Shown here in pieces: positions 4,671 to 30,965 of a DNA stretch of 46,393 bases (positions are counted from its first letter, which is position 1; each line of letters starts with the position of its first letter). A model generated the notes under the pieces. It saw only the letters and a program-made list of their open reading frames with translations, was not told the DNA's origin and searched no databases. The stretch comes from Rhodanobacteraceae bacterium (GTDB lineage Bacteria > Acidobacteriota > Terriglobia > Terriglobales > Acidobacteriaceae): assembly GCA_903970285.1 (NCBI GenBank), contig CAJCHN010000113.1:1-46393 (forward strand), written 5' to 3'. The position numbers were made by a program, and so were the translations under genes.

Positions 4671-4928
4671 AAGCTATTCCGCATTCGCTTCCGCAATAGA
4701 AATATCGAATCTGTGCCAAAGAAATTTTCACTGAAGGTAACGCTTTCGTTCTGCGCCAAACTCGCGTAAATTCGGTCAATCATTTTTTGCGTTGCGGGCG
4801 GGGCAGAGCCAACCATCTCTGCCGGGAACATCGTTGGCGCGCCACAAACCGTTGGCACAACCCAATGAGTCCCACCCGCCCCCCGCGGTTTTGTGCACGT
4901 GTACCTGCAGACTTACACGAGGCCACTC
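4671..4928 (+). promoter_or_regulatory. Leader region of the TonB-receptor/glycosidase cluster with palindromes
   Basis: A 258-bp gap with no credible gene. It contains a perfect 10-bp palindrome, TGGCGCGCCA, at 4835-4844 inside a TTGGCGCGCCACAA context, and a second TTGGCA-type half site at 4851-4857. The GTGCAC palindrome at about 4893-4898 lies just before the receptor gene. These are plausible operators for a sugar-responsive LacI-type regulator, but no such regulator is encoded in the window and I could not identify a clear -35/-10 pair. Confidence 0.35.
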
Positions 4929-7900
4929 ATGCCCAAAAGCAAAAGTAGGAACTTAGACACGAACTTAAAAAGAATTGCGCTGGCCGCTTTTCTCGTCGCT
5001 TTCTCCCTGTGGATGCCGCTCGTTCTTTCCCCTAACGCTCACGCTCAGCAAACCCTCGGCGGCATCACCGGAACGATTACGGATAAAACCGGCAGCGTTC
5101 TGCCCGAGACCGTTGTGACTATCGTGGGCGACCAGACGAAGCTGACGCGTACGCAAAAAGCCAACGCCAATGGCGCGTACGACTTTGTCAACCTGCCCAT
5201 CGGCACCTACACGCTCACCTTCACGCATGAAGGCTTTGAAACGCAAAAGATTCCCTCCATCACAGTGCAGGCGGACCGCACCGCCACGGTGAATGCATCG
5301 TTGGCCGTAGGCCAAGTCGGAACCATCCTCACGGTCGAAGCCGTGCCCTTGATGAACGCAGTCGACACTACCAACGGTTACATTCTGGAAGAACAGCAGA
5401 TTCAAAACATCCCGCTGCCCACAGGAAGTTTCACAGGGTTAGCCATTCTTTCGCCCGGAGTAAATGCGGAGTTGCCCAACGGTACAGGCGCAAACGCCGG
5501 CTTGGGCAATCAACCCATTTGGGCCAATGGCCAGCGCGATACCAGCAACACGTTTCTACTGAATGGAGTCGACGCCAGCAATCTGTTCAACGGCAAAAGC
5601 ACCAGCCAGGTAGCTTCCGCGCGCATCGTAAACAACACCGGTGTTTCGGGCGCCTCCAGTACCACCGCCGAAATCATTCAAAGCACAGCGTCCCCGTACC
5701 TCGCAATTGGTGAGGCTTTGCCCACGCCCGCTCCGGAAACCGTTCAAGAATTCCGCGTCAACACTTCCATGTACGACGCGCAACAAGGTTCGACCAGCGG
5801 CGCCCACATCGACATGAGCACCGCCTCCGGCACCAATGCTATTCACGGCAGCGCTTACGTTCACCGTGGAACCAGTTGGCTAGGTGCGGCCCCGTATTTT
5901 TATAATCAGGATGCCAACATTCCCGCCAACGAAAAGGTCCCCGACGTGCGCCGTTACACAGCCGGCGCAACCATCGGCGGGCCGCTGATCAAAGACAAGC
6001 TCTTCGCATTTTTCGATTACCAGGGGCTTCGCGAGGCGATTCCGAACGGAGGTGCGCAGATCAACACCGTTCCGACGCCTCAGATGCTGACCGGCGATTT
6101 CTCACAACTTCTGGGCACCGGCCTTACCAGTGTTCCCTACGACGGCTTCGGCGGGTATGACCCTACAGGCTGTAAGGCCTTCACCACCGTGCACGGTGTC
6201 TCCGTCACCAGTACCGCGCAACTGAACGCATCGATCGACAACGGCGCCATCTTCGATCCGACCACCTGCGCGCAGTTCGGCACGATCACGGCACCGAACA
6301 TCATTCCGACCAATCGGCTCAACCCGGTCGCGCTCAACTACCTGAAGGCGTTTCCGGCGCCAAACCGCACGCCGACCAGCAACGTTCTGGACAATTACCA
6401 GAACACGCAATTCATCGTGAACAAGTACAACGACTTCGACGTTCGAATGGACTATAACCTTGGCGGGAAAGATCGTATCTTCGCGCGTTACAGCTACGGC
6501 CAGGATAACGACACGAAGACCGTCTCCGTGGCGGGCGTTCCTTCAGGCTTTGCAGCCGGTTCGAACAACACGCACCCACGCGGCGTGGCGGCAGGGGAAA
6601 CCCACACCTTCACCCCGAATCTGCTGAACGAATTCCGCTTCGGATTTACCCGTCCGTTCTATGGGTACATCAATCCGTTTGACTACGAGCCCTTCTCGGC
6701 GAACCTGGGAATTCCGAACGCGAACCGCAATTCGTTCCTGGGCGGGGGGGCGCTGATTGGCGGCAATAACACCAATCTTTCTTACACGGGTGACGGCGGA
6801 GCGTACGAGGTGCCGCAGCGCTCCTATCAGATCGTGGATAACGTCAGCCTGAACCATGGCAAGCACGCATTCGTCTTCGGCGAAAGCGTGCTGTTCCGCA
6901 CGGTCAAGTTCGCGCAGGGCAACGACGCCAAGGGCTTCTTTCAGTTCCAGGGCTCGGGCAGCGACTATACCGGTTGGGATACGGCTGAAGTCTTGGCGGG
7001 TTTCGTCAACACGTACTCCATCTCTACATCGACCGGGTACTATGACACCCGCACCTACGAAATGGGTTACTTCGCGCAGGACGACTGGAAGATTACCCCT
7101 CGGCTGACCCTGAACCTTGGCATCCGGTACGACCTCTACAACTTCCCCCTGGAGACGAACAACAAGCAGTCGAACTTCAACATCGCGACGGGCGTGCTCG
7201 AAGTTGCCGGGCAAAACGGCAACTCGCGTTCGCTGGTCAATACGCCCAAAACCAACTTTGCGCCGCGCGTCGGCTTTGCGTGGGATGCTTACGGCGATGG
7301 CAAGACGGCGGTGCGCGGCGGCTACGGCATCTACTACTTCCTCGATCGCGGCGGTGTAGGCAACGAGCTGAACAACAACCCGGACTTCAACGGGATTGCG
7401 AGCTATAACGATTACTCCGGCTACCGCATCGCGCTCTCGGGCGAAGGCCCCACGCTGCTGCCTTCGAGCGGCCAGCTCCCCGGTCCTTACCCGGGTAACA
7501 ACAGCACGCTGGCGACAGGCGCTCTGCCGAGCCCGACAGTCAGCATCAATCCACTCGCACCCACCAACGCAAGCGTGATCGCCTACCCGGTCAACAGCCA
7601 CATCCCCACCATCCAGGAGTGGAACCTCTCGGTGCAGCAGGAGATTGCGCGGAACACCACCGCCACCATCTCCTACGTGGGCACCAAGGCGGATCACCTG
7701 CTGGTGAGCACCGGTTATAGCGGTGCGCAGCTTGGAACCGGGATCGAGTTCTACCAGTCCTCGGGTCTGGGGGTGACGCTCAACGAGTTTGAAGGCACCT
7801 CGCACTACAACGGCTTGCAGACGAGCCTCAACAAGCGGCTGGCGCAGGGCTTCCAGATTACGGCGGCTTATACCTGGTCGCATAATGTGGATGACGCGCC

Positions 7901-8582
7901 CGGGCCATTCACGGCCAATCAGGCGGGCGTGCCGGTCACGGCGCAGGGTCCGGACCTGCATCTCGACCGAGGCAACGCGGATGACGATCAGCGCCATGCA
8001 GCAACGTTCTCGGCCTTGCTCGAGGTGCCGTACGGACGCGGACGCCGGTTTGGGTCCAACATCAACAAGGCGTTGGATTACGTGGTCGGCGGCTATCAGT
8101 TCAGCCCGTTCGTGCAGATCGGTTCGGGCACGCCGTTCGACTTGACCGTCAACAACCCCAGCCGCAACCAGGGGCCGGATAACCGTCCCGACCTGGTCGG
8201 CAATCCTCGCATCGGCCTGGTCAAGGACTTCGCAACCTCCGCAAACGGCTTCAACTATCTCAACCAGGCTGCCTTCGCAAATCCGCCGGTCAATGCCAAC
8301 GGAATCTACTTCCGTCCCGGCACGGTGCATCGCAACGAGTTTTACGGGCCGGGCTACAACACCACGGGCCTGTCCATCTTCAAGGACATTCCCGTGACCG
8401 AGCGAATCAAGTCGCAGATTCGCGGCCAGGCCTACAACCTCTTCAACCATCCGCAATTCGCCAACCCGAGCAACGGCACGTCGGGCGGCGGCACCAACCT
8501 CGACACCTCTCAGATCGTCGTCAACAGCACACGCTTCCGCAGTGCGCGGGAGCTCGAACTGGCTTACCGTGTGACGTTCTAA
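4929..8582 (+). CDS. Oar-like TonB-dependent outer-membrane receptor
   Basis: 1217-residue outer-membrane receptor. Order: signal peptide (residues ~15-40, ending HAQQ), carboxypeptidase-regulatory-like beta domain (~42-130, TLGGITGTITDKTG through VGTILTVEA), plug domain (~140-330) and a long beta-barrel to the C-terminus, which ends in an aromatic residue (AYRVTF) as expected for outer-membrane insertion. Start: ATG 4929, preceded by GAGG at a normal distance, rather than the upstream GTG at 4893, which would put 12 extra residues before the signal peptide. Followed by exported GH13 and GH31 enzymes on the same strand, so the likely job is uptake of malto-oligosaccharides. No SusD-type lipoprotein follows. 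Confidence 0.92.
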   Translation: MPKSKSRNLDTNLKRIALAAFLVAFSLWMPLVLSPNAHAQQTLGGITGTITDKTGSVLPETVVTIVGDQTKLTRTQKANANGAYDFVNLPIGTYTLTFTHEGFETQKIPSITVQADRTATVNASLAVGQVGTILTVEAVPLMNAVDTTNGYILEEQQIQNIPLPTGSFTGLAILSPGVNAELPNGTGANAGLGNQPIWANGQRDTSNTFLLNGVDASNLFNGKSTSQVASARIVNNTGVSGASSTTAEIIQSTASPYLAIGEALPTPAPETVQEFRVNTSMYDAQQGSTSGAHIDMSTASGTNAIHGSAYVHRGTSWLGAAPYFYNQDANIPANEKVPDVRRYTAGATIGGPLIKDKLFAFFDYQGLREAIPNGGAQINTVPTPQMLTGDFSQLLGTGLTSVPYDGFGGYDPTGCKAFTTVHGVSVTSTAQLNASIDNGAIFDPTTCAQFGTITAPNIIPTNRLNPVALNYLKAFPAPNRTPTSNVLDNYQNTQFIVNKYNDFDVRMDYNLGGKDRIFARYSYGQDNDTKTVSVAGVPSGFAAGSNNTHPRGVAAGETHTFTPNLLNEFRFGFTRPFYGYINPFDYEPFSANLGIPNANRNSFLGGGALIGGNNTNLSYTGDGGAYEVPQRSYQIVDNVSLNHGKHAFVFGESVLFRTVKFAQGNDAKGFFQFQGSGSDYTGWDTAEVLAGFVNTYSISTSTGYYDTRTYEMGYFAQDDWKITPRLTLNLGIRYDLYNFPLETNNKQSNFNIATGVLEVAGQNGNSRSLVNTPKTNFAPRVGFAWDAYGDGKTAVRGGYGIYYFLDRGGVGNELNNNPDFNGIASYNDYSGYRIALSGEGPTLLPSSGQLPGPYPGNNSTLATGALPSPTVSINPLAPTNASVIAYPVNSHIPTIQEWNLSVQQEIARNTTATISYVGTKADHLLVSTGYSGAQLGTGIEFYQSSGLGVTLNEFEGTSHYNGLQTSLNKRLAQGFQITAAYTWSHNVDDAPGPFTANQAGVPVTAQGPDLHLDRGNADDDQRHAATFSALLEVPYGRGRRFGSNINKALDYVVGGYQFSPFVQIGSGTPFDLTVNNPSRNQGPDNRPDLVGNPRIGLVKDFATSANGFNYLNQAAFANPPVNANGIYFRPGTVHRNEFYGPGYNTTGLSIFKDIPVTERIKSQIRGQAYNLFNHPQFANPSNGTSGGGTNLDTSQIVVNSTRFRSARELELAYRVTF

Positions 8583-22278: not shown

Positions 22279-23553
22279 TTGCAGACACCTCCCCAAACGC
22301 GCCCTTTCTACACCACGCTCTACTTTCGCGTGCTCGTCGGCATCTTCGCAGGCGTCCTCACCGGCCTCTTGTTCCCCCGCTTCGGTGAAGCCATGAAGCC
22401 CTTCGCCGATGGTTTCATTAAACTCATCCGCATGCTCATCGCGCCGGTGATCTTCTTCACCATCGTCCTCGGCATTGCCGGCGTGGGCGACCTCCGGCGC
22501 CTGGGCCGCGTCGGCATCAAGGCACTGCTCTACTTCGAAGTGGTGACCACCTTCGCGCTGGCCATCGGCATGTTGATCGCCGATGTTTTTCAGCCCGGAC
22601 GCGGCCTCAATATCGACCCCGCTACGCTGAATCCCGCCGGCATCAGCCAATACACCGCTGATTCCGCACACCTGGGCGTCGCCGGCTTCCTGCTCAACAT
22701 CCTGCCTGACAGCTTTGCCGGGGCCTTTACCCAAGGCGAAATCCTGCAGGTCCTGGTGCTTGCCATCCTGTGCGGCATCGCGGTGAACATGCTCGATACC
22801 CGCGATGAGAGTGATCGCCTCCTCTCCAGCCTGAGAACCCTCAACCGATGGTTCTTCAAGCTCGTCGCCCTGGTCATGGAGGCCGCGCCTGTCGGGGCCT
22901 TCGGCGCCATGGCCTTTACCGTCGGACACTCCGGGGCCGCCGTCCTGCTCAAGCTGCTCAACCTCATGCTTTGCGTCTACGCCACCAGCTTCGCCTTTGT
23001 CTTCGTGGTTCTTGGAGTCATCTGCTGGCGCAATGGCGTCAGCCTCTGGCGCCTGCTCGTCTACCTGCGCGGCGAACTCCTCATTGTCCTCGCCACCAGC
23101 TCTTCCGAAGCTGCACTCCCGCGCCTGCTCGAAAAAATGGAAGCGCTCGGCTGCTCCAAAGCCGTGACCGGCCTGGTCATCCCGGCGGGTTACTCGTTCA
23201 ATCTCGACGGAACGTCCATCTATCTGACGATTGCGGCCCTGTTCATCGCGCAGGCGACCAACGTCCACCTTTCCCTGCGCCAGCAGCTATTCATCCTGGC
23301 GATCCTCATGCTGAACTCGAAGGGCGCGGCCGCAGTCACCGGCGGCGGCTTCATTACTCTTGCAGCGACCTTGGCGGCCATCGGAACGATTCCTGTTGCC
23401 GGGATCACCCTCATCCTGGGGGTCGATCGCTTCATGTCGGAGATGCGCTCGCTCACCAACCTCATCGGCAACAGCGTGGCCACCATTGTGGTCGCGCGCT
23501 GGGAGAACCAGTTCGACCAGCAGCAGGCCGGTGGCGTGTTATCCGGCAAGTAG
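22279..23553 (+). CDS. dctA: Dicarboxylate/amino acid:cation symporter (DctA/GltP family)
   Basis: 424-residue inner-membrane carrier of the DAACS family, which imports C4-dicarboxylates or acidic amino acids with protons or sodium. Family signatures: the serine-rich re-entrant loop ATSSSEAALPRLLEKM, then AGYSFNLDGTSIYLT and LNSKGAAAVTGGGFI in the C-terminal core. The start is TTG 22279, with GAGG seven bases upstream; an earlier ATG reads straight into a stop. The length is normal for the family. It is divergent from the Crp-type regulator. Whether dicarboxylate or glutamate is preferred cannot be told. Confidence 0.93.
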   Translation: MQTPPQTRPFYTTLYFRVLVGIFAGVLTGLLFPRFGEAMKPFADGFIKLIRMLIAPVIFFTIVLGIAGVGDLRRLGRVGIKALLYFEVVTTFALAIGMLIADVFQPGRGLNIDPATLNPAGISQYTADSAHLGVAGFLLNILPDSFAGAFTQGEILQVLVLAILCGIAVNMLDTRDESDRLLSSLRTLNRWFFKLVALVMEAAPVGAFGAMAFTVGHSGAAVLLKLLNLMLCVYATSFAFVFVVLGVICWRNGVSLWRLLVYLRGELLIVLATSSSEAALPRLLEKMEALGCSKAVTGLVIPAGYSFNLDGTSIYLTIAALFIAQATNVHLSLRQQLFILAILMLNSKGAAAVTGGGFITLAATLAAIGTIPVAGITLILGVDRFMSEMRSLTNLIGNSVATIVVARWENQFDQQQAGGVLSGK

Positions 23554-24999: not shown

Positions 25000-26211
25000 A
25001 TGCCGACTTCCGCATCCTCCCGCCGTTCGTTCCTGCGCTTCGCCTCACTGGCCGCCGCGACGCCCATCTTCACCGAAGCCCACTTTGCCTTTGCCGCCCA
25101 ACAGACTTCCGCCGCGAAGCCTGCAACCCGCCGCAGCTTTACTCCTCCGCCGCCGGGAGCCGTCCTGATCAATGCCAACGAGAATCCGCTCGGCCCGTGT
25201 AAGGCAGCCTGCGACGTCATCGCGTCCATCGCTCCCTCCGGCGGCCGCTACGATTTGTTCGGCGAGACCGACAAGCTGACCAAAACCTTCGCCTCCCAGC
25301 ATGGACTGAAAGAGGAGTACATCGCCGTCTACGCCGGCTCGTCCGAGCCCCTGCATTACACGGTTCTCGCCTTCACCTCGCCCACCCGCGGCCTGGTTCT
25401 CGCCGATCCGTCCTACGAAGCACCCACCTACGCGGCCAGAACTTCCGGCGCCAAAGTCACCAAGGTGCCGCTGACTCCTACCTATGCCCACGACCTGAAG
25501 GCCATGGTCGCCGCCGACCCGGCCGCAGGCGTCATCTATATCTGCAATCCCAACAACCCGACCGGCACCCTCACCTCCAAGCAGGAGATCGCCTGGGCCT
25601 ACGACAACAAACCCAAGGGTTCCGTCCTGCTGGTTGACGAGGCATACATCCACCTCTCCGACTCTCCCGATGTGCTCGACATGGTCGCGGCCGACAAGGA
25701 CATCATCGTTCTGCGCACCTTCTCCAAGATCTACGGCATGGCCGGCATCCGCTGCGGCTTCGCCGTCGGCCGCCCGGATCTGCTCGCCAAGCTTCAGCCC
25801 TTCGGCCAGAACGCCATGCCCATCACCGGATCGGCTGCCGCCAACGTCTCGCTGCTCGATGTCGAACTGATCCCCACGCGCAAGAAGATCATCGGAGACA
25901 CCCGCGCAGACACCATCGCCTGGCTCAACACCAACAAGTACAAGGTGATCGGCAACTCGCAATCGAACTGCTTCATGATTGATACCGGGCGCAACGGCAA
26001 GCAGGTGATTGGCGCCATGGCCGCCAAGAACGTGATGATCGGCCGCACCTGGCCTATCTGGCCGAACGCTGTTCGCATCTCCGTCGGCACTCCCGCGGAG
26101 ATGGCCAAGTTCAAGACCGCCTTCAAGGAAGTGATGGATGCTCCCGCCACCGCATCCCTGACCGCAAAGCCGTTCACAGCAGATGGACGCGTGCTCCCAC
26201 AGTACGCGTAG
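25000..26211 (+). CDS. Tat-exported PLP aminotransferase (HisC-like, class I/II)
   Basis: 403 residues. A twin-arginine signal, SSRRSFLRFAS, near the N-terminus is followed by a hydrophobic stretch and FAAQ, so a folded, cofactor-loaded enzyme is exported. Fold type I landmarks are intact: NPNNPTGT, LLVDEAYI, the PLP lysine K243 in TFSKIYGMAG and a C-terminal RISVG arginine. It resembles histidinol-phosphate aminotransferase, but export rules out histidine biosynthesis. ATG 25000 was chosen for AAGGAG seven bases upstream; the earlier ATG at 24976 would bury the Tat motif deeper. It probably transaminates or racemises a free amino acid in the periplasm (inference). Confidence 0.88.
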   Translation: MPTSASSRRSFLRFASLAAATPIFTEAHFAFAAQQTSAAKPATRRSFTPPPPGAVLINANENPLGPCKAACDVIASIAPSGGRYDLFGETDKLTKTFASQHGLKEEYIAVYAGSSEPLHYTVLAFTSPTRGLVLADPSYEAPTYAARTSGAKVTKVPLTPTYAHDLKAMVAADPAAGVIYICNPNNPTGTLTSKQEIAWAYDNKPKGSVLLVDEAYIHLSDSPDVLDMVAADKDIIVLRTFSKIYGMAGIRCGFAVGRPDLLAKLQPFGQNAMPITGSAAANVSLLDVELIPTRKKIIGDTRADTIAWLNTNKYKVIGNSQSNCFMIDTGRNGKQVIGAMAAKNVMIGRTWPIWPNAVRISVGTPAEMAKFKTAFKEVMDAPATASLTAKPFTADGRVLPQYA

Positions 26212-26222
26212 CGCCGTTGTTC

Positions 26223-26241
26223 ACCTGCCGCTGCGGCAGGT
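26223..26241 (+). terminator. Perfect 9-bp inverted repeat with T-rich tail after the aminotransferase
   Basis: ACCTGCCGC and GCGGCAGGT are separated by a single T, followed by TCCTTTATT, 12 bases after the stop. This is the most terminator-like signal in the window, although the usable loop would melt the innermost pairs. It would separate the aminotransferase from the dipeptidase. Confidence 0.6.
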
Positions 26242-26330
26242 TCCTTTATTCCAGCCTCCGCCCTCGAATCCGGAGCGGTCCCAGTCTGTCGGGGCCGCTT
26301 CCCTCGCCTCTGTTCCAGAAAGGGAAGTTC

Positions 26331-27608
26331 GTGCCTCATCTGCCTTCCGCGCATCGAGCGCCTTGCCTGTGCGTCGCCGCCCTGGCTGCTATGTGCCTTT
26401 GCGTCCCTCTCCATGCGCAGACTCCCCACACCGTCGCGCAGGCCGATGTGGATCGCATCACGCGCGACGCCATCCTCATCGACACGCATGACGACGTGCC
26501 CTCGAACACCATCGACGGCTACGACATTGGAACCGCAAATCTGAAGGCTCAAACCGATCTCCCACGGATGCGTGGCTTTCTCGGTGCGGAGTTCTTCGCC
26601 GTCTTCGTCGACGCCAGCTATGTCGAGGGCAACCACTCCGCCAACCGCACCCTGCAGATGATTGACACGGTCACAACCGATATCATCGCCCGCTATCCCC
26701 ACGACTTCGTCTTCGCCACCACCGCCGAAGACATCATGCAAGCCCACAAAGACCACAAGATCGCCGCTCTCATGGGGATCGAAGGCGGTCACGCCATCGA
26801 GGACTCGCTGCGCCTGCTGCGCGTCTACTATGCCCTCGGCGTCCGCTACATGACGCTGACCCACTTCAACACCAACGACTGGGCGGACGCGCAGGGAGAC
26901 ATCACCGACGTCAAGGTCCATCACCATGGCGGCCTTACGCCATTCGGCAAGGATGTCGTCCGCGAGATGAATCGGCTCGGCATGATGGTCGATGTCTCGC
27001 ACACTGCCGACTCCACCTTCAACGATGTGATTGCAACTTCAACGGCGCCCGTCATCGCATCGCACTCGTCCTGTCGCGCGCTCGATGACAACACCCGCAA
27101 TATGACGGACGAGATGATCCGTGCGCTCGCAGCCAACGGTGGCACCATCCAGATCAACTTCGAGTGTGCCTACCTCTCGCAACGCTACAACGACCAGGCC
27201 AAGCCCCTGATGGCCAAACTGATGCCGCGCTACGCGGAGGCGCAGAAGCTCGCCGATCCCGCGGCCCGACAGGCTGCCATCACCGCCATCTTTGCTGAAT
27301 CCGCGTCGATTCCCCCGGCGACGCTCGAGGATGTCGTCGCCCAGATCGACCACGCGGTACAGGTTGGCGGCATCGACCATGTCGGCATCGGCACGGACTT
27401 CGACGGCTCCAGTTGTGTGCCCGTCGGGCTCGATTCCTACAACAAGTTCCCCGCGCTCACCCGGGCGCTGCTGGAAAAGGGATATGGCGCCAAGGACATC
27501 CAGAAGATCTACGGCGGCAACATCCTGCGCGTGATGCGCGCCGTGGAAAAACGTGCGGTCGAACTGAAGTCGATGCCACCCCTCAACTCCAGCGTCGACA
27601 AAAAGTAA
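26331..27608 (+). CDS. Exported membrane dipeptidase, peptidase family M19
   Basis: 425 residues from a GTG start (AGGGAAG upstream; the longer ORF has an implausible Arg/Pro-rich leader). The signal peptide ends around PLHAQ. The M19 (renal dipeptidase) zinc site is complete: H-x-D in LIDTHDD, Glu in GIEGGHAIED, and His residues in MVDVSHTAD and IASHSS, plus the late GIGTDFDG motif. These enzymes cleave dipeptides, often with a D-residue at the C-terminal side. It follows the aminotransferase on the same strand and converges on the RidA/amine oxidase pair, so it is likely to feed free amino acids to the exported enzymes nearby. Confidence 0.93.
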   Translation: MPHLPSAHRAPCLCVAALAAMCLCVPLHAQTPHTVAQADVDRITRDAILIDTHDDVPSNTIDGYDIGTANLKAQTDLPRMRGFLGAEFFAVFVDASYVEGNHSANRTLQMIDTVTTDIIARYPHDFVFATTAEDIMQAHKDHKIAALMGIEGGHAIEDSLRLLRVYYALGVRYMTLTHFNTNDWADAQGDITDVKVHHHGGLTPFGKDVVREMNRLGMMVDVSHTADSTFNDVIATSTAPVIASHSSCRALDDNTRNMTDEMIRALAANGGTIQINFECAYLSQRYNDQAKPLMAKLMPRYAEAQKLADPAARQAAITAIFAESASIPPATLEDVVAQIDHAVQVGGIDHVGIGTDFDGSSCVPVGLDSYNKFPALTRALLEKGYGAKDIQKIYGGNILRVMRAVEKRAVELKSMPPLNSSVDKK

Positions 27609-27657
27609 ATCCGCGGCACTCATCCCTGATCGCGTCAAGCGCCGCCCGCAACGCCGT

Positions 27658-28143
27658 TTACTTAGCCCGCACCGCAATCACCTCAACCTCGATCAACGCC
27701 CAGGGAGCCGCAAGTGCCGCCACCTGGAACGCGGAACGAGCTGGCTTGTTCGGCTGATCCTTGGTGCCGAAGTACTTCGTGTACTCCGACATCATCCCGG
27801 CGAAATCCAGCTTGCCCGTCGCCGGATCAGGCCCCAGGAACACGGTCATCTTCACCACGTCCTTCATGTCCAGCCCTTGCTCCTGTAGCAGCTTCTGGAT
27901 CTTCGCGAACACGCTGGCCGACTGCGCCTTGGTATCGCCGTAGACGGCAGGTGTGCCCTTCGCCTCGTCAGCCGGCGTGACCGGAGACGCAAGCTGTCCG
28001 CTCAAATAGTAGGTGTCGCCCGCCCACACACCGGTCGCGATCGCCGCCTTCTCGGTCTGGATGTGCTTCACCACCACCTGCCCGCGCGCGGCACCCGCAC
28101 CGCAAGCCGCAACCACGCCCGCAACCATCATCCAACGCTTCAT
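27658..28143 (-). CDS. Exported RidA-family enamine/imine deaminase
   Basis: 161 residues: a signal peptide (1-22, AARGQ) then a complete RidA domain. The key arginine is in PARSAFQVAALA and the conserved IEVEV strand follows, so catalysis is plausible. Most RidA proteins are cytoplasmic; here export places it with a flavin amine oxidase (63 bases upstream, same strand) whose product is an imine. The pair forms an operon. The protein is clearly a different subgroup from the cytoplasmic RidA at 2814-3272. Confidence 0.88.
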   Translation of the reverse strand: MKRWMMVAGVVAACGAGAARGQVVVKHIQTEKAAIATGVWAGDTYYLSGQLASPVTPADEAKGTPAVYGDTKAQSASVFAKIQKLLQEQGLDMKDVVKMTVFLGPDPATGKLDFAGMMSEYTKYFGTKDQPNKPARSAFQVAALAAPWALIEVEVIAVRAK

Positions 28144-28206
28144 CGAACTCTCTCCCCGTCGTTCTTCTCTTGCGGCCCCAGGAGCAAAGCTCCAGTCGTT
28201 GCGGCC

Positions 28207-29865
28207 CTAGCCGAGCACATTGCCCATGGCCTCGGTCAGCCGAGCCATCTTCACCTTCTCCGCGAGCTGGTTTACCGCATACAGCGCGCTCAGCGCCGCG
28301 CCCTCCTGCCAGGCCACCACATGGCTGCAGTGATCGCCGGCAAAGATGATTGGTCCATCCGGCTGAATCAACTGCTCGTACGCAGGATCGGTCTCTGTCC
28401 GGGCCGCCGCCGGATTGCGCGCCTGCCCGGTCTGCCGCGTCAACGCGACGCCCGGAGCCTTCTCGCGCGGCGCGAAGCTGCGCAGCCACGATCCCTCGTT
28501 GTAAGCCACCTTGCCCCATTCGACGATCATCGGCTTCTCAAGCTCTTTCCCACGCCCTGGATGCAGGCGCTCAATCGACTTCCGGCTCTCTGCAAACTTA
28601 CCCTGCTGATCCAGCTTGGCGAACCACTCATTGTCATTCTCGTCCGAGTATCCGCTCACCAGTACTCCACGCTCGGAAAACAGCCCCGCCGACGGAAACC
28701 AGATCGGACTGCAACCCACATTGACGAACTCCAGGCCGCCATAGATGTTGTCGTCCTGCTCCCAGAACCGGCGGCTCTCCCACGCCACCTTGTACGCGTT
28801 CGCATAGGTCGTCTGCTCGAAGATCTTCTTGTATGGCGCGCTGATGTCGCTCGGCGTGTTCTTCAGGATCGTCAGGGGCATGGCGCAGATGCAGTAGTCC
28901 GCATCCAGTGACTTCGTCACCCCGCTCTGCGTGTAACCGATCCGCACGCCCTTGCCGGTCTTCCTGATCTCCGCCACCGGAGACCCGTACTGCACGATGG
29001 TTCCCAGCGACTTGGCAAACGCATACGGGATCCGGTCCATTCCGCCCACCGGCTGAAACATCGTCGCCTGCATGTCGAACTGCTCGTCGAACAGCATGCC
29101 CTGCCAGAAGCTCTCGTCCAGCAGCGTATGCATGTCGATCGGGGTCGAGAGCACGCCCGTGTCATCTCCCGCGCCGGCGGTCTTCGCGTATCCGGCACGA
29201 TCGCTGCCCCCATATTTGCCCGCCTCATCGAGCGGACCGTACATGCGCAGAAAATCCATCATGCGCGTCTTGTCGTCTGCCGAAAGATCCGCGTCCAGCG
29301 CACCCTGCCGCAGGCTCTTCGAAAGCAGTTCACTCACATGGCCGCGCGTATCGTTCACCACCTGGCGCATTACCGCGGGCTTGCCTCCGTTGGCATTGTC
29401 GTTCTGCAGGTGAGCGGAGCGCGTCATGTTCACTTCCACCTGCAATTCCACCCCAAGCTTCCGGCAGTAACCCAGAATCGTCGGGTGAATCGAGGGCAGC
29501 CGCGCGGGTCCAAAGTTCTGGTAGTGTCCCGCATCCCACGTACATCGCTGTGTCGAACCATCCATGAACTTGACCGTGTCGCCCCCGCGCACGCTCCAGT
29601 TACGTCCACCGGGACGTTCGCGCGCCTCCAGCACCGTCACGTCATAACCCAGGATGCGCAGTTCGTATGCCGCAACGAGTCCAGCGATGCCCGCGCCCAG
29701 CACCACCACCTTCACGCCTTTTCCCGAGCCCGGCGCTGCGGCGACTTCGGCCGGAGCCTCAGCCCGCATCTCCATCAATCCAAGACCCTGCATGGCGAGA
29801 AAAGCGGCGCTGTATCCACCGGCCTGCCCTACTCGCGAAAGAAAACTCCGTCGACTCAAAGCCAT
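28207..29865 (-). CDS. Tat-exported flavin monoamine/L-amino acid oxidase
   Basis: 552 residues. The N-terminal twin-arginine signal is SRRSFLSRVG. An FAD-binding Rossmann motif, VLGAGIAGLVAAYELR, with GRNWSVRGGD follows (~50-95), and the late FAD motif GPIIFAGDHCSH lies near residue 510. The layout matches amino acid oxidases and tryptophan 2-monooxygenase-like proteins, which oxidise an amine to an imine and make hydrogen peroxide. ATG 29865 has GGAGG nine bases upstream; the ATG at 29874 lies right against that site. It is co-transcribed with the exported RidA. The substrate is probably an amino acid from the exported dipeptidase (inference). Confidence 0.9.
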   Translation of the reverse strand: MALSRRSFLSRVGQAGGYSAAFLAMQGLGLMEMRAEAPAEVAAAPGSGKGVKVVVLGAGIAGLVAAYELRILGYDVTVLEARERPGGRNWSVRGGDTVKFMDGSTQRCTWDAGHYQNFGPARLPSIHPTILGYCRKLGVELQVEVNMTRSAHLQNDNANGGKPAVMRQVVNDTRGHVSELLSKSLRQGALDADLSADDKTRMMDFLRMYGPLDEAGKYGGSDRAGYAKTAGAGDDTGVLSTPIDMHTLLDESFWQGMLFDEQFDMQATMFQPVGGMDRIPYAFAKSLGTIVQYGSPVAEIRKTGKGVRIGYTQSGVTKSLDADYCICAMPLTILKNTPSDISAPYKKIFEQTTYANAYKVAWESRRFWEQDDNIYGGLEFVNVGCSPIWFPSAGLFSERGVLVSGYSDENDNEWFAKLDQQGKFAESRKSIERLHPGRGKELEKPMIVEWGKVAYNEGSWLRSFAPREKAPGVALTRQTGQARNPAAARTETDPAYEQLIQPDGPIIFAGDHCSHVVAWQEGAALSALYAVNQLAEKVKMARLTEAMGNVLG

Positions 29866-30177
29866 CCTGTGCATCCTCCAGAGGAAAAGCGTGTGCTACA
29901 CCGCGGCCACGGCGAGCTGCTCAGCAGTAATGCTCGTTGGTCGGAAACGTCTCGTTGAGGTGATGAAAACCGTTCACTGCAGGAGGAACGATCGGGCCCG
30001 GTGCGGAGACAAAACTGGTTTTTCGAATGGTTCTTCCACTCTACCCCACGCAAGCCAATCCATTCATCTTTAATTCACACCGCCCGCACGAAGCGAAGCC
30101 GCCTCCCCCCACCCGGGGAACGGCGGCTTCTCGAAATGTGACCGCTTCTTCTCGAAAGTGTGTAACTGCCGGCAGTC
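29866..30177. other. 312-bp gap without a gene
   Basis: No credible coding frame. It should hold the promoter of the amine oxidase operon. It also contains the 30095-30130 hairpin and a near-direct repeat of TCTCGAAA followed by GTG-rich sequence at about 30130 and 30153. Confidence 0.5.
30095..30130. terminator. 9-bp perfect hairpin downstream of the methyltransferase
   Basis: GAAGCCGCC (30095-30103) pairs perfectly with GGCGGCTTC (30122-30130) across an 18-base C/G-rich loop. It lies 47 bases past the methyltransferase stop in the direction of transcription. No T tract follows on the minus strand, so it may be a stabilising stem or a factor-assisted terminator. Confidence 0.5.
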
Positions 30178-30849
30178 TTACTTCGCTTCAAAGATCAGAA
30201 AATAGTCCTGCCCGTCCGCCTTGGTGAAGTCATAGAGCCCCACCTTGCGATATCCGGCTTCGCTCATCTCCCGCTCCACCACGTCGCGGTTCAAGCCATG
30301 ATCGGTGCCGTTCCCATTGCGATCGATAATCCCCACCCGGGCTCCCTGCGCCAGCGAGCCTCGCAGCCCCTGCATGAATGGGATCGGCCGCGCAATCTCG
30401 TGATACACCTTCAGCAGCAGCACCGCATCCACTGCATGCGGCAGCAGCTTCGCGTCGTCCGGAGTTCCGAGCACCGTCTTCACGTTGCCCAGGTTCTCCT
30501 TCTTCGCCCGGTCCTCCATGTACTCGATCGCCTTGGGATTGATGTCCTCGGCAAACACCACGCCCTTCGGTCCCACACGGCGCGCCGCCCGCACCGTGAA
30601 CCAGCCTGACCCCGCCCCGATGTCCGCGAACGTCTTGCCTGGCGTGACATGCAGCAGATCCATCACCTTCTGCGGCTGCAGCTTCTGATCGCGGTCCGGA
30701 TACTCAAAGATCGAAAGATCTCCCGAGTAAGGCGTACTCGTCGGCCGCGGCTGCTGCGTCGACGGCGCCTGCGCCCAGGCCATCCCGGTTGCCAGCACCA
30801 GGCCGAACAGTACCCCGCAAATCCCCGACCGACTCCATGGACTCTTCAT
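30178..30849 (-). CDS. Class I SAM-dependent methyltransferase with signal peptide
   Basis: 223 residues. The N-terminus (MKSPWSRSGICGVLFGLVL to AWAQAP) looks like a cleavable signal peptide. The rest is a Rossmann methyltransferase with motif I around FADIGAGSGWFTVRAARRVG, an acidic residue at VVFAEDI, and a later DAVLLLKVYHEI segment. Because SAM is cytoplasmic, export is puzzling; the leader may instead be a membrane anchor. The ATG at 30849 is preferred over an upstream in-frame codon. Substrate unknown. It lies upstream of the amine oxidase operon on the same strand but 312 bases away, so it is probably a separate unit. Confidence 0.82.
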   Translation of the reverse strand: MKSPWSRSGICGVLFGLVLATGMAWAQAPSTQQPRPTSTPYSGDLSIFEYPDRDQKLQPQKVMDLLHVTPGKTFADIGAGSGWFTVRAARRVGPKGVVFAEDINPKAIEYMEDRAKKENLGNVKTVLGTPDDAKLLPHAVDAVLLLKVYHEIARPIPFMQGLRGSLAQGARVGIIDRNGNGTDHGLNRDVVEREMSEAGYRKVGLYDFTKADGQDYFLIFEAK

Positions 30850-30965
30850 CCCATAAGCATCCGCCAATCTCCGCCCTCGGCGCAACCGGCGCAACCGCCA
30901 GCCACCACCCCATCAAAGCGCCGTCGCCCGCAACTTTGGCCTTTCTCATCTGGCATCATCAACAC

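What the first reader, a model, noticed from the sequence alone, without database searches (positions are those of the whole stretch)
25000..29865. Exported amino-acid catabolic module: Tat aminotransferase, dipeptidase, RidA and flavin amine oxidase
Seen: four adjacent genes encode exported proteins. They are a Tat-signal PLP aminotransferase with an intact lysine (K243), an M19 dipeptidase with complete zinc ligands, a signal-peptide RidA with its key arginine, and a Tat-signal flavin amine oxidase in an operon with that RidA. Known: M19 enzymes free amino acids, amine oxidases make imines, and RidA clears imines. Inference: the cell dismantles dipeptides outside the cytoplasm and has a dedicated periplasmic imine hydrolase, a role I do not know to be described for RidA.
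Basis: partly seen in the sequence, partly recalled or inferred. Interest (0 to 1): 0.72.

Follow-up and report, generated by a model that had tools for sequence, protein, structure and literature searches.

The report
Exported amino-acid oxidase and imine-hydrolase module
Next to each other, this bacterium carries genes for four enzymes that appear to work outside its cytoplasm: one that should cut dipeptides, one that should oxidise amino acids, one that should clear the reactive imine this makes, and one that should move amino groups; a similar oxidase and imine-clearing pair is already known outside the cytoplasm of an alga, and the four-gene version looks new.

Summary
AT (25000-26211 +, Tat) and an M19 dipeptidase (26331-27608 +, Sec) converge on RidA (27658-28143 -, Sec) and a Rhodococcus-type L-amino-acid oxidase, LAO (start 29865 or 29874, Tat). 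It is not chance: of 220 family genomes 54 have this RidA, and in 51 of 54 it lies within 1.5 kb of LAO on the same strand. AT lies within 4 kb of LAO or M19 in 19 of 114 rows, all 19 among the 27 of at least 60% identity; M19 is next to LAO or AT in 12 of 17. All four together: 1 of 220, plus Granulicella sp. dw_53. RidA is nearest to subfamily Rid3, of which two members hydrolyse LAAO-made imines in print. Among the 80 closest named relatives, 62 of 79 readable ones have a signal-type extension and 69 of 80 loci an LAO nearby; the 17 without form one Pseudomonas-type clade. New, as far as searched: this exported Rid lineage, and its link with a PtaA-like transaminase and an M19 dipeptidase. 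Location, activity and joint function are inferred.

The parts
25000..26211 (+). Tat-type exported PLP aminotransferase (NF006580 subfamily, near PtaA); Lys243 intact
   Evidence: NF006580 541 bits over cut-off 444; NF051461 PtaA 418 bits, under cut-off 500; PF00155; SRRSFL motif; within 4 kb of LAO or M19 in 19 of 114 family rows, 19 of the 27 of at least 60% identity
26331..27608 (+). Sec-type exported M19 (renal-type) dipeptidase; GTG start preferred over TTG 26217
   Evidence: PF01244 349 bits; best solved relative 3id7, ligands aligned; next to LAO or AT in 12 of 17 family rows
27658..28143 (-). signal-peptide Rid-family (Rid3-like) putative imine hydrolase with Arg136; Cys14 gives a possible lipobox (VAAC)
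   Evidence: PF01042 73 bits over 27.3; best solved relatives 9bka PSPTO3006 and 9bkc PFL1385, 114 and 94 bits against 49 or less for the rest; signal in orthologues
28207..29874 (-). Tat-type exported Rhodococcus-type L-amino-acid oxidase, upstream of RidA; probable start ATG 29865
   Evidence: 2jae R. opacus LAAO 308 bits, next best 86; PF01593; SRRSFL motif; RidA adjacent on the same strand in 51 family genomes
28144..28206 (-). 63-bp LAO-RidA gap holding GGGGAGAG before the RidA ATG; operon-like spacing
   Evidence: sequence read directly

Best explanation
An extracytoplasmic (periplasmic) amino-acid deamination module. LAO, folded with FAD and sent through Tat, oxidises free L-amino acids to 2-imino acids; the Sec-exported Rid3-type protein encoded just downstream hydrolyses the imine to the 2-oxo acid and ammonium. 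In this organism a second, converging gene pair adds an M19 dipeptidase that would free amino acids from dipeptides and a Tat-exported PLP transaminase that would exchange amino groups between amino and 2-oxo acids in the same compartment. With no cytochrome c gene found beside it, the LAO is predicted to react with O2 (H2O2 formed). Shown here: the genes, motifs, export-type N-termini, catalytic residues and conserved linkage. Inferred: the actual location, the activities, the substrates, co-transcription and the joint function of the four.
For: LAO-RidA: 51 of 54 genomes with this RidA among 220 of the family, same strand in 51 of 51; LAO within 6 kb in 69 of 80 named genome loci. Export: RidA of the 14 family genomes in the phylum sample that have it (window included) all carry a Sec-type N-terminus and their partner LAOs an RR motif; 62 of 79 readable named relatives have the N-terminal extension. 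Linkage of the other two: 14 AT rows lie by LAO and 6 by M19, 19 of the 27 AT rows of at least 60% identity by one or other; M19 by LAO in 7 of 17 and by AT in 6 of 17; LAO, RidA and AT all co-directional in G327, G364, G373, G381. Chemistry: Rid3 proteins PFL_1385 and PSPTO_3006 lower semicarbazone formation with snake-venom LAAO on Leu, Gln, Phe, Met and His (PMC5619798, passages). Catalytic residues intact. Most Tat-type amine oxidases without adjacent cytochrome c that were tested reacted fast with O2 (PMC12224317, passages).
Against: All four genes lie together in only 1 of 220 family genomes, plus Granulicella sp. dw_53 (L138). 95 of 114 AT rows have no LAO or M19 within 4 kb, among them all 87 rows under 60% identity; M19 is alone in 5 of 17. 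Of 89 LAO hits 38 have no RidA within 1.5 kb, so an exported LAO does not need an adjacent RidA. Outside the family, of five phylum genomes with a RidA hit one (G240) has LAO next to it, on the opposite strand, one (G246) has it about 4 kb away, and three do not; the G214 hit has no signal. Synteny within one family is not independent evidence, and the 60% line was drawn after seeing the data. Seven of 80 named loci with full 6-kb flanks lack an LAO. No localisation or activity data.
Confidence: 0.65

Rival explanations
1. Only LAO and RidA form a functional unit; AT and M19 are unrelated exported enzymes that happen to sit nearby.
For: All four together in 1 of 220 family genomes; 95 of 114 AT rows and 5 of 17 M19 rows have no partner within 4 kb. 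More distant M19 homologues are common: 68 of 247 phylum genomes at E up to 1e-80.
Against: AT or M19 recur beside LAO/RidA in different arrangements: AT converging on RidA-LAO, LAO-RidA-AT co-directional, LAO-M19 and LAO-AT without adjacent RidA, AT-M19 alone. By my rough arithmetic (about 0.3% per genome) fewer than one AT-LAO adjacency is expected by chance in 114 rows; 14 are seen, though in related genomes.
Confidence: 0.2
2. A periplasmic tailoring module for a peptide natural product, as in pyoverdine maturation: the transaminase acts like PtaA on a peptide-bound residue and the M19 protein like PvdM (PvdM as an M19 protein is recalled).
For: AT scores 418 bits to the PtaA model; PtaA is a Tat-exported transaminase also found in species that make no pyoverdine (PMC6206403, passages).
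Against: AT is under the PtaA cut-off of 500; one NRPS condensation-domain match in the whole genome; M19 aligns with active dipeptidases with all ligands kept; LAO is nearest to a free-amino-acid oxidase; no biosynthesis gene was recognised among the recurrent neighbour clusters, though I annotated only two of them besides the four.
Confidence: 0.1
3. The LAO is an antimicrobial or signalling enzyme that makes H2O2, or makes indole-3-pyruvate and auxin from tryptophan, rather than a nutrient scavenger.
For: In Gluconacetobacter the lao cluster is implicated in IAA formation from tryptophan (PMC5053998, passages); Chlamydomonas LAO1 likewise (PMC10805672, passages).
Against: The M19 and transaminase neighbours point to general amino-acid handling; about half of the exported-type named loci with an LAO (27 of 52) have a cytochrome c-like ORF close by, which would suit electron harvest rather than peroxide (PMC12224317).
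Confidence: 0.12
4. Turnover of peptidoglycan-derived peptides: the M19 enzyme cleaves L,D-dipeptides from the cell wall and the rest disposes of the amino acids.
For: M19 enzymes related to 3id7 accept L,D-dipeptides (recalled).
Against: No cell-wall gene was recognised among the recurrent neighbours, most of which I did not annotate; specificity cannot be read from sequence.
Confidence: 0.12

Closest known systems
Chlamydomonas reinhardtii periplasmic LAAO with RidA (LAO1 and LAO2/RIDA; M-alpha and M-beta subunits)
   Same: An extracytoplasmic L-amino-acid oxidase paired with a RidA protein, thought to scavenge ammonium from amino acids (PMC5053998 and PMC10805672, passages).
   Different: Eukaryote; the passages read mention no exported transaminase or dipeptidase; sequences were not compared here.
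Gluconacetobacter diazotrophicus lao-cccA-ridA operon
   Same: LAAO and ridA in one cluster; the LAAO is predicted to be Tat-exported; the authors note conservation in Caulobacter and Xanthomonas (PMC5053998, passages).
   Different: A cytochrome c gene is part of it; none was found in the window. The passages read mention no AT or M19 and no signal on that RidA.
Rid3 subfamily proteins PFL_1385 and PSPTO_3006
   Same: Nearest solved relatives; hydrolyse LAAO-made imines and iminoarginine in vitro (PMC5619798, passages).
   Different: The main text of that paper has no word beginning with 'signal' or 'periplasm'. PSPTO_3006-like proteins lack the extension; the PFL_1385 chain matches a signal-bearing homologue of the same length, residues 8-164 on 8-164.
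Rhodococcus opacus L-amino acid oxidase (2jae)
   Same: Best solved relative of LAO by a wide margin, 308 bits over nearly the whole chain.
   Different: The window protein has a Tat-type N-terminus; localisation of the Rhodococcus enzyme was not checked.
PtaA, periplasmic transaminase of Pseudomonas
   Same: Tat-exported transaminase whose model is the second-best match of AT.
   Different: Score below the PtaA cut-off; genomic partners are LAO, RidA and M19, not pyoverdine genes.

Membership tests
Rid family (Rid3-like) | Pfam PF01042 domain over the curated cut-off | tested here: met
   73.2 bits against 27.3
Rid family (Rid3-like) | Catalytic arginine equivalent to RidA Arg105 | tested here: met
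   Arg136; R in 100 of 100 aligned rows, Glu152 in 99 of 100 with one X
Rid family (Rid3-like) | Closer to Rid3 than to the RidA, Rid1 or Rid2 subfamilies | tested here: inconclusive
   Two Rid3 structures score 114 and 94 bits, all other solved matches 49 or less; no tree with reference members of every subfamily was built
Archetypal Rid detoxifying hydrolase (TIGR00004) | NCBIfam model cut-off | tested here: not met
   61.9 bits against 106.25
Rid family (Rid3-like) | Imine/enamine hydrolase activity | not testable with these tools
   needs protein
R. opacus-type L-amino-acid oxidase | Flavin amine oxidase domain and FAD-binding GxGxxG | tested here: met
   PF01593 132.6 bits against 19.8; VVVLGAGIAGLVAA read in the sequence
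R. opacus-type L-amino-acid oxidase | Substrate-binding Arg and Tyr and pocket Trp (recalled as Arg84, Tyr371, Trp426) | tested here: met
   Arg of PARLPS, Tyr of SGYS and Trp of GSW align with Arg, Tyr and Trp of the 2jae chain; that these are the named residues, and their roles, is recalled
R. opacus-type L-amino-acid oxidase | Oxidation of L-amino acids with O2 | not testable with these tools
   needs protein
PtaA | NF051461 equivalog cut-off | tested here: not met
   418 bits against 500
NF006580 aminotransferase subfamily | Curated cut-off and PLP lysine | tested here: met
   541 bits against 444; Lys243
M19 renal-type dipeptidase | PF01244 and the binuclear zinc ligands | tested here: met
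   349 bits against 26; ligands aligned with 3id7 and 1itq (which residues are ligands is recalled)
M19 renal-type dipeptidase | Dipeptidase activity | not testable with these tools
   needs protein
lao-cccA-ridA operon of Gluconacetobacter type | cytochrome c gene in the operon | tested here: not met
   no signal-bearing CxxCH ORF found in the window by a motif scan
lao-cccA-ridA operon of Gluconacetobacter type | LAAO and ridA adjacent on one strand, LAAO Tat-type | tested here: met

The most novel reading that the evidence does not exclude
A self-contained transdeamination cycle outside the cytoplasm. LAO plus the exported Rid3-type protein make 2-oxo acids on the spot, and these are the amino acceptors that turn the Tat-exported, PLP-loaded transaminase back over. 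Amino acids that LAO oxidises poorly would pass their amino group to LAO-derived oxo acids and be deaminated indirectly. This would answer how a periplasmic transaminase regenerates its PLP form, which PMC6206403 leaves as 'somehow regenerated' (passage). Alongside it, the Rid lineage followed here would be ancestrally exported in Acidobacteriota and Pseudomonadota and brought back into the cytoplasm once, in a Pseudomonas lineage, perhaps together with its oxidase.
Probability: 0.25. Interest if true: 0.72.

Novelty: new variant of a known kind. Interest (0 to 1): 0.5.

Why it matters
Rid proteins are mostly discussed as cytoplasmic guards of PLP enzymes (general knowledge). Here a Rid lineage close to two proteins with published imine-hydrolase activity appears, in most of its nearest relatives, to be made for export and tied to an exported amino-acid oxidase. 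That gives a concrete setting for imine damage control outside the cytoplasm. The recurring neighbour, a Tat-exported transaminase, would turn the open question of how periplasmic transaminases are recharged into a bench experiment.

Tried and rejected
Chance neighbourhood: rejected for LAO-RidA (51 of 54) and unlikely for the closer AT orthologues (19 of 27 of at least 60% identity; 19 of all 114) and M19 (12 of 17).

Wrong start codon as the source of the RidA signal: rejected. The orthologues of the 14 family genomes in the phylum sample keep a Sec-type N-terminus while its letters vary, and the residues before the conserved I35 number 14 in the signal-less clade (23 and 24 in two of its rows, where my start choice lies upstream) against 26 to 45 in all other aligned rows. 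Three of those (L152, L163, L167) have only a weakly hydrophobic extension with the start chosen. Two rows were not in that alignment: L020, which scored under my threshold and has no signal, and L184, whose start is off the contig.

Pyoverdine-like maturation: kept as a rival, lowered by a single condensation-domain match in the genome and by the PtaA cut-off.

Joint loss of export in Pseudomonas: only half supported. The RidA side is clear: 17 rows, one change on the tree, branch support 99/94. For the partner LAO, 17 of 17 read RREAL, where 47 of 49 LAOs beside an extended RidA have F, L, M or C two places after RR. But hydrophobicity and charge count overlap between the groups, so I do not claim that the Pseudomonas LAO is cytoplasmic.

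Outer-membrane receptors (PF25183) near the module: suggestive only, because the background density was not measured. Signal-bearing RidA paralogues in L042 and L043 have no LAO beside them and no partner that I recognised. Structure prediction was not run; sequence matches were already clear.

One search counts all 114.
Full report
What is there. The window is one contig of a 4.13-Mb genome in 151 contigs; the nearest named RidA relatives are in Acidobacteriaceae such as Edaphobacter and Granulicella. Between 25000 and 29874 lie two converging gene pairs: AT (25000-26211) then M19 (26331-27608) on the plus strand, and LAO (28207-29865 or 29874) then RidA (27658-28143) on the minus strand. AT and LAO begin with SRRSFL Tat motifs; M19 and RidA have Sec-type signals. 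The split is coherent: the enzymes with organic cofactors (PLP, FAD) use Tat, which moves folded proteins, the other two use Sec. TatC is encoded in the genome. RidA also has a possible lipobox (VAAC, Cys14), so it may be membrane-anchored in this species.

Families. AT: NF006580 541 bits (cut-off 444), PtaA model 418 bits (cut-off 500, not met), best solved relative 3ly1. M19: PF01244, best solved relative 3id7, ligands conserved. RidA: PF01042; best solved relatives are the two Rid3 proteins 9bka and 9bkc, while the archetypal Rid model is under its cut-off. LAO: R. opacus LAAO at 308 bits, next 86. The genome has one more Rid hit (42% identity over residues 36-157, its N-terminus not examined) and no second full LAO at E up to 0.001, only a short 54% match over the FAD-binding stretch.

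Conservation in the family. In 220 genomes of the family (evaluated), 54 have the RidA at E up to 1e-15 (64 hits). In 51 genomes it lies within 1.5 kb of an LAO, same strand in all 51. The three genomes without are G434, G407 and G383 (G407 is in 410 contigs, so a contig break is possible there); the other ten unlinked hits are further Rid hits in G163, G209, G225, G340, G363, G368, G372, G380 (two) and G407. There are 89 LAO hits in 67 genomes, 51 with RidA. AT: 114 rows in 102 genomes at E up to 1e-100; within 4 kb of LAO 14, of M19 6, of either 19. All 19 are among the 27 rows of at least 60% identity; none of the 87 lower rows is linked (one, G403, has an LAO within 10 kb). M19: 17 rows at E up to 1e-115; by LAO 7, by AT 6, by either 12. 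AT and M19 are co-directional with AT first in 6 of 6. AT is co-directional behind LAO-RidA in four genomes (G327, G364, G373, G381) and converges on the LAO side in ten. Five LAO loci lack an adjacent RidA but keep AT (G115, G302) or M19 (G033, G179, G417). All four together: only the window genome here, and Granulicella sp. dw_53 among the named loci (L138). In the earlier phylum sample of 247 genomes 19 have a RidA hit at E up to 1e-12: 14 in this family, all with LAO beside it, and five outside it, where one has LAO adjacent on the opposite strand (G240), one about 4 kb away (G246), and three not (G221, G034, G214).

Recurrent neighbours. An all-against-all comparison of genes in 60 stretches (part of the window and 59 loci) gave LAO (46 stretches), RidA (36), AT (19) and M19 (8) among its seven most widespread clusters. 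These stretches had been chosen because they hold one of the four, and some species may be there twice (named and unnamed), so this is a description, not a test. The other widespread clusters are mostly shared synteny of part of the loci and were not annotated, except two outer-membrane barrel receptors.

Wider distribution. The query was built from signal-bearing proteins, so the set leans towards them. LAO within 6 kb: 69 of 80. Of the 11 without, 4 are on cut contigs and 7 have full flanks. The RidA start is readable in 79: 62 have the N-terminal extension and 17 do not. The 17 (16 titled Pseudomonas, one 'gamma proteobacterium L18') form one clade nested among extended relatives, one change on the tree, support 99/94 (short alignment, many forks unresolved, rooted at the midpoint). 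Among the 52 extended loci with an LAO, 27 have a signal-bearing CxxCH ORF close by, 25 of them Pseudomonadota; 1 of 17 signal-less loci does (motif search, false positives possible). So the pair occurs with and without a cytochrome c. By the rule of PMC12224317 (Tat plus adjacent cytochrome c predicts a dehydrogenase; passages) the window type is predicted to be an oxidase; the main text of that paper has no word beginning with Rid.

How it works. Best reading: LAO oxidises amino acids in the periplasm, RidA hydrolyses the imine, M19 supplies amino acids from dipeptides, AT exchanges amino groups. The imine step is supported by published assays of two Rid3 proteins (PMC5619798: semicarbazone rate for Leu from 46 to 2, Phe 21 to 3, His 22 to 8-9; passages) and of Salmonella RidA and Rid2 (PMC4433059, passages). 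That RidA and Rid3 genes cluster with FAD amine oxidases was already noted by PMC4433059. The dipeptide and transaminase steps are inference from linkage.

What is known and what is new. Known: extracytoplasmic LAAO with RidA in Chlamydomonas (PMC10805672, passages; older work cited in PMC5053998, passages), the lao-cccA-ridA operon, Rid/oxidase gene clustering, Tat-exported transaminase PtaA with an open question about PLP turnover (PMC6206403, passages). Searches that could have shown a description of an exported or periplasmic Rid protein in bacteria (open-access library only, listings seen) showed none that I recognised beyond these. New here, as far as those searches go: most of the nearest relatives of this Rid protein carry export-type N-termini and sit with a Tat-type LAO; one Pseudomonas-type clade lacks the RidA signal; in Acidobacteriaceae the pair is repeatedly joined by a Tat transaminase or an M19 dipeptidase, and in two genomes by both.

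Noticed in passing
window 4893-8582 (+): A large outer-membrane barrel receptor (PF25183 with a carboxypeptidase-like plug, 671 bits). Receptors of this kind lie directly upstream of LAO in L036, L147, L153, L154 and L166 and near the module in ten more loci; they could bring in peptides, but background density was not measured.
   Followed up: partly
L042, L043 (G225, G209): Further signal-bearing RidA paralogues with no LAO beside them: one next to a DinB-like gene, one beside small apparently exported proteins.
   Followed up: partly
L038:6938-10513: A signal-bearing RidA downstream of a Tat-type protein with a dimethylformamidase-like C-terminal domain (PF20254), the genome's LAO being on another contig: a possible second kind of partner.
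   Followed up: no
L222, L228 (G083:C1:513560, G225:C1:140732): A second LAO type, about 49% identical, with a Tat-type motif, without RidA, AT or M19 in the stretch and without a cytochrome c-like ORF nearby.
   Followed up: partly
L137: A record titled Caulobacter sp. S45 holds a RidA 71% identical to the acidobacterial one and placed among them on the tree; transfer or contamination.
   Followed up: no
window 30178-30894 (-): A methyltransferase-type protein (PF13847) with a Sec-type N-terminus (GLVLATGMAWAQ), so possibly an exported SAM-dependent fold; that would be unusual.
   Followed up: no
window 22279-23553 (+): A DctA-type dicarboxylate symporter upstream of the module; no recurrent neighbour cluster contains it.
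   Followed up: partly
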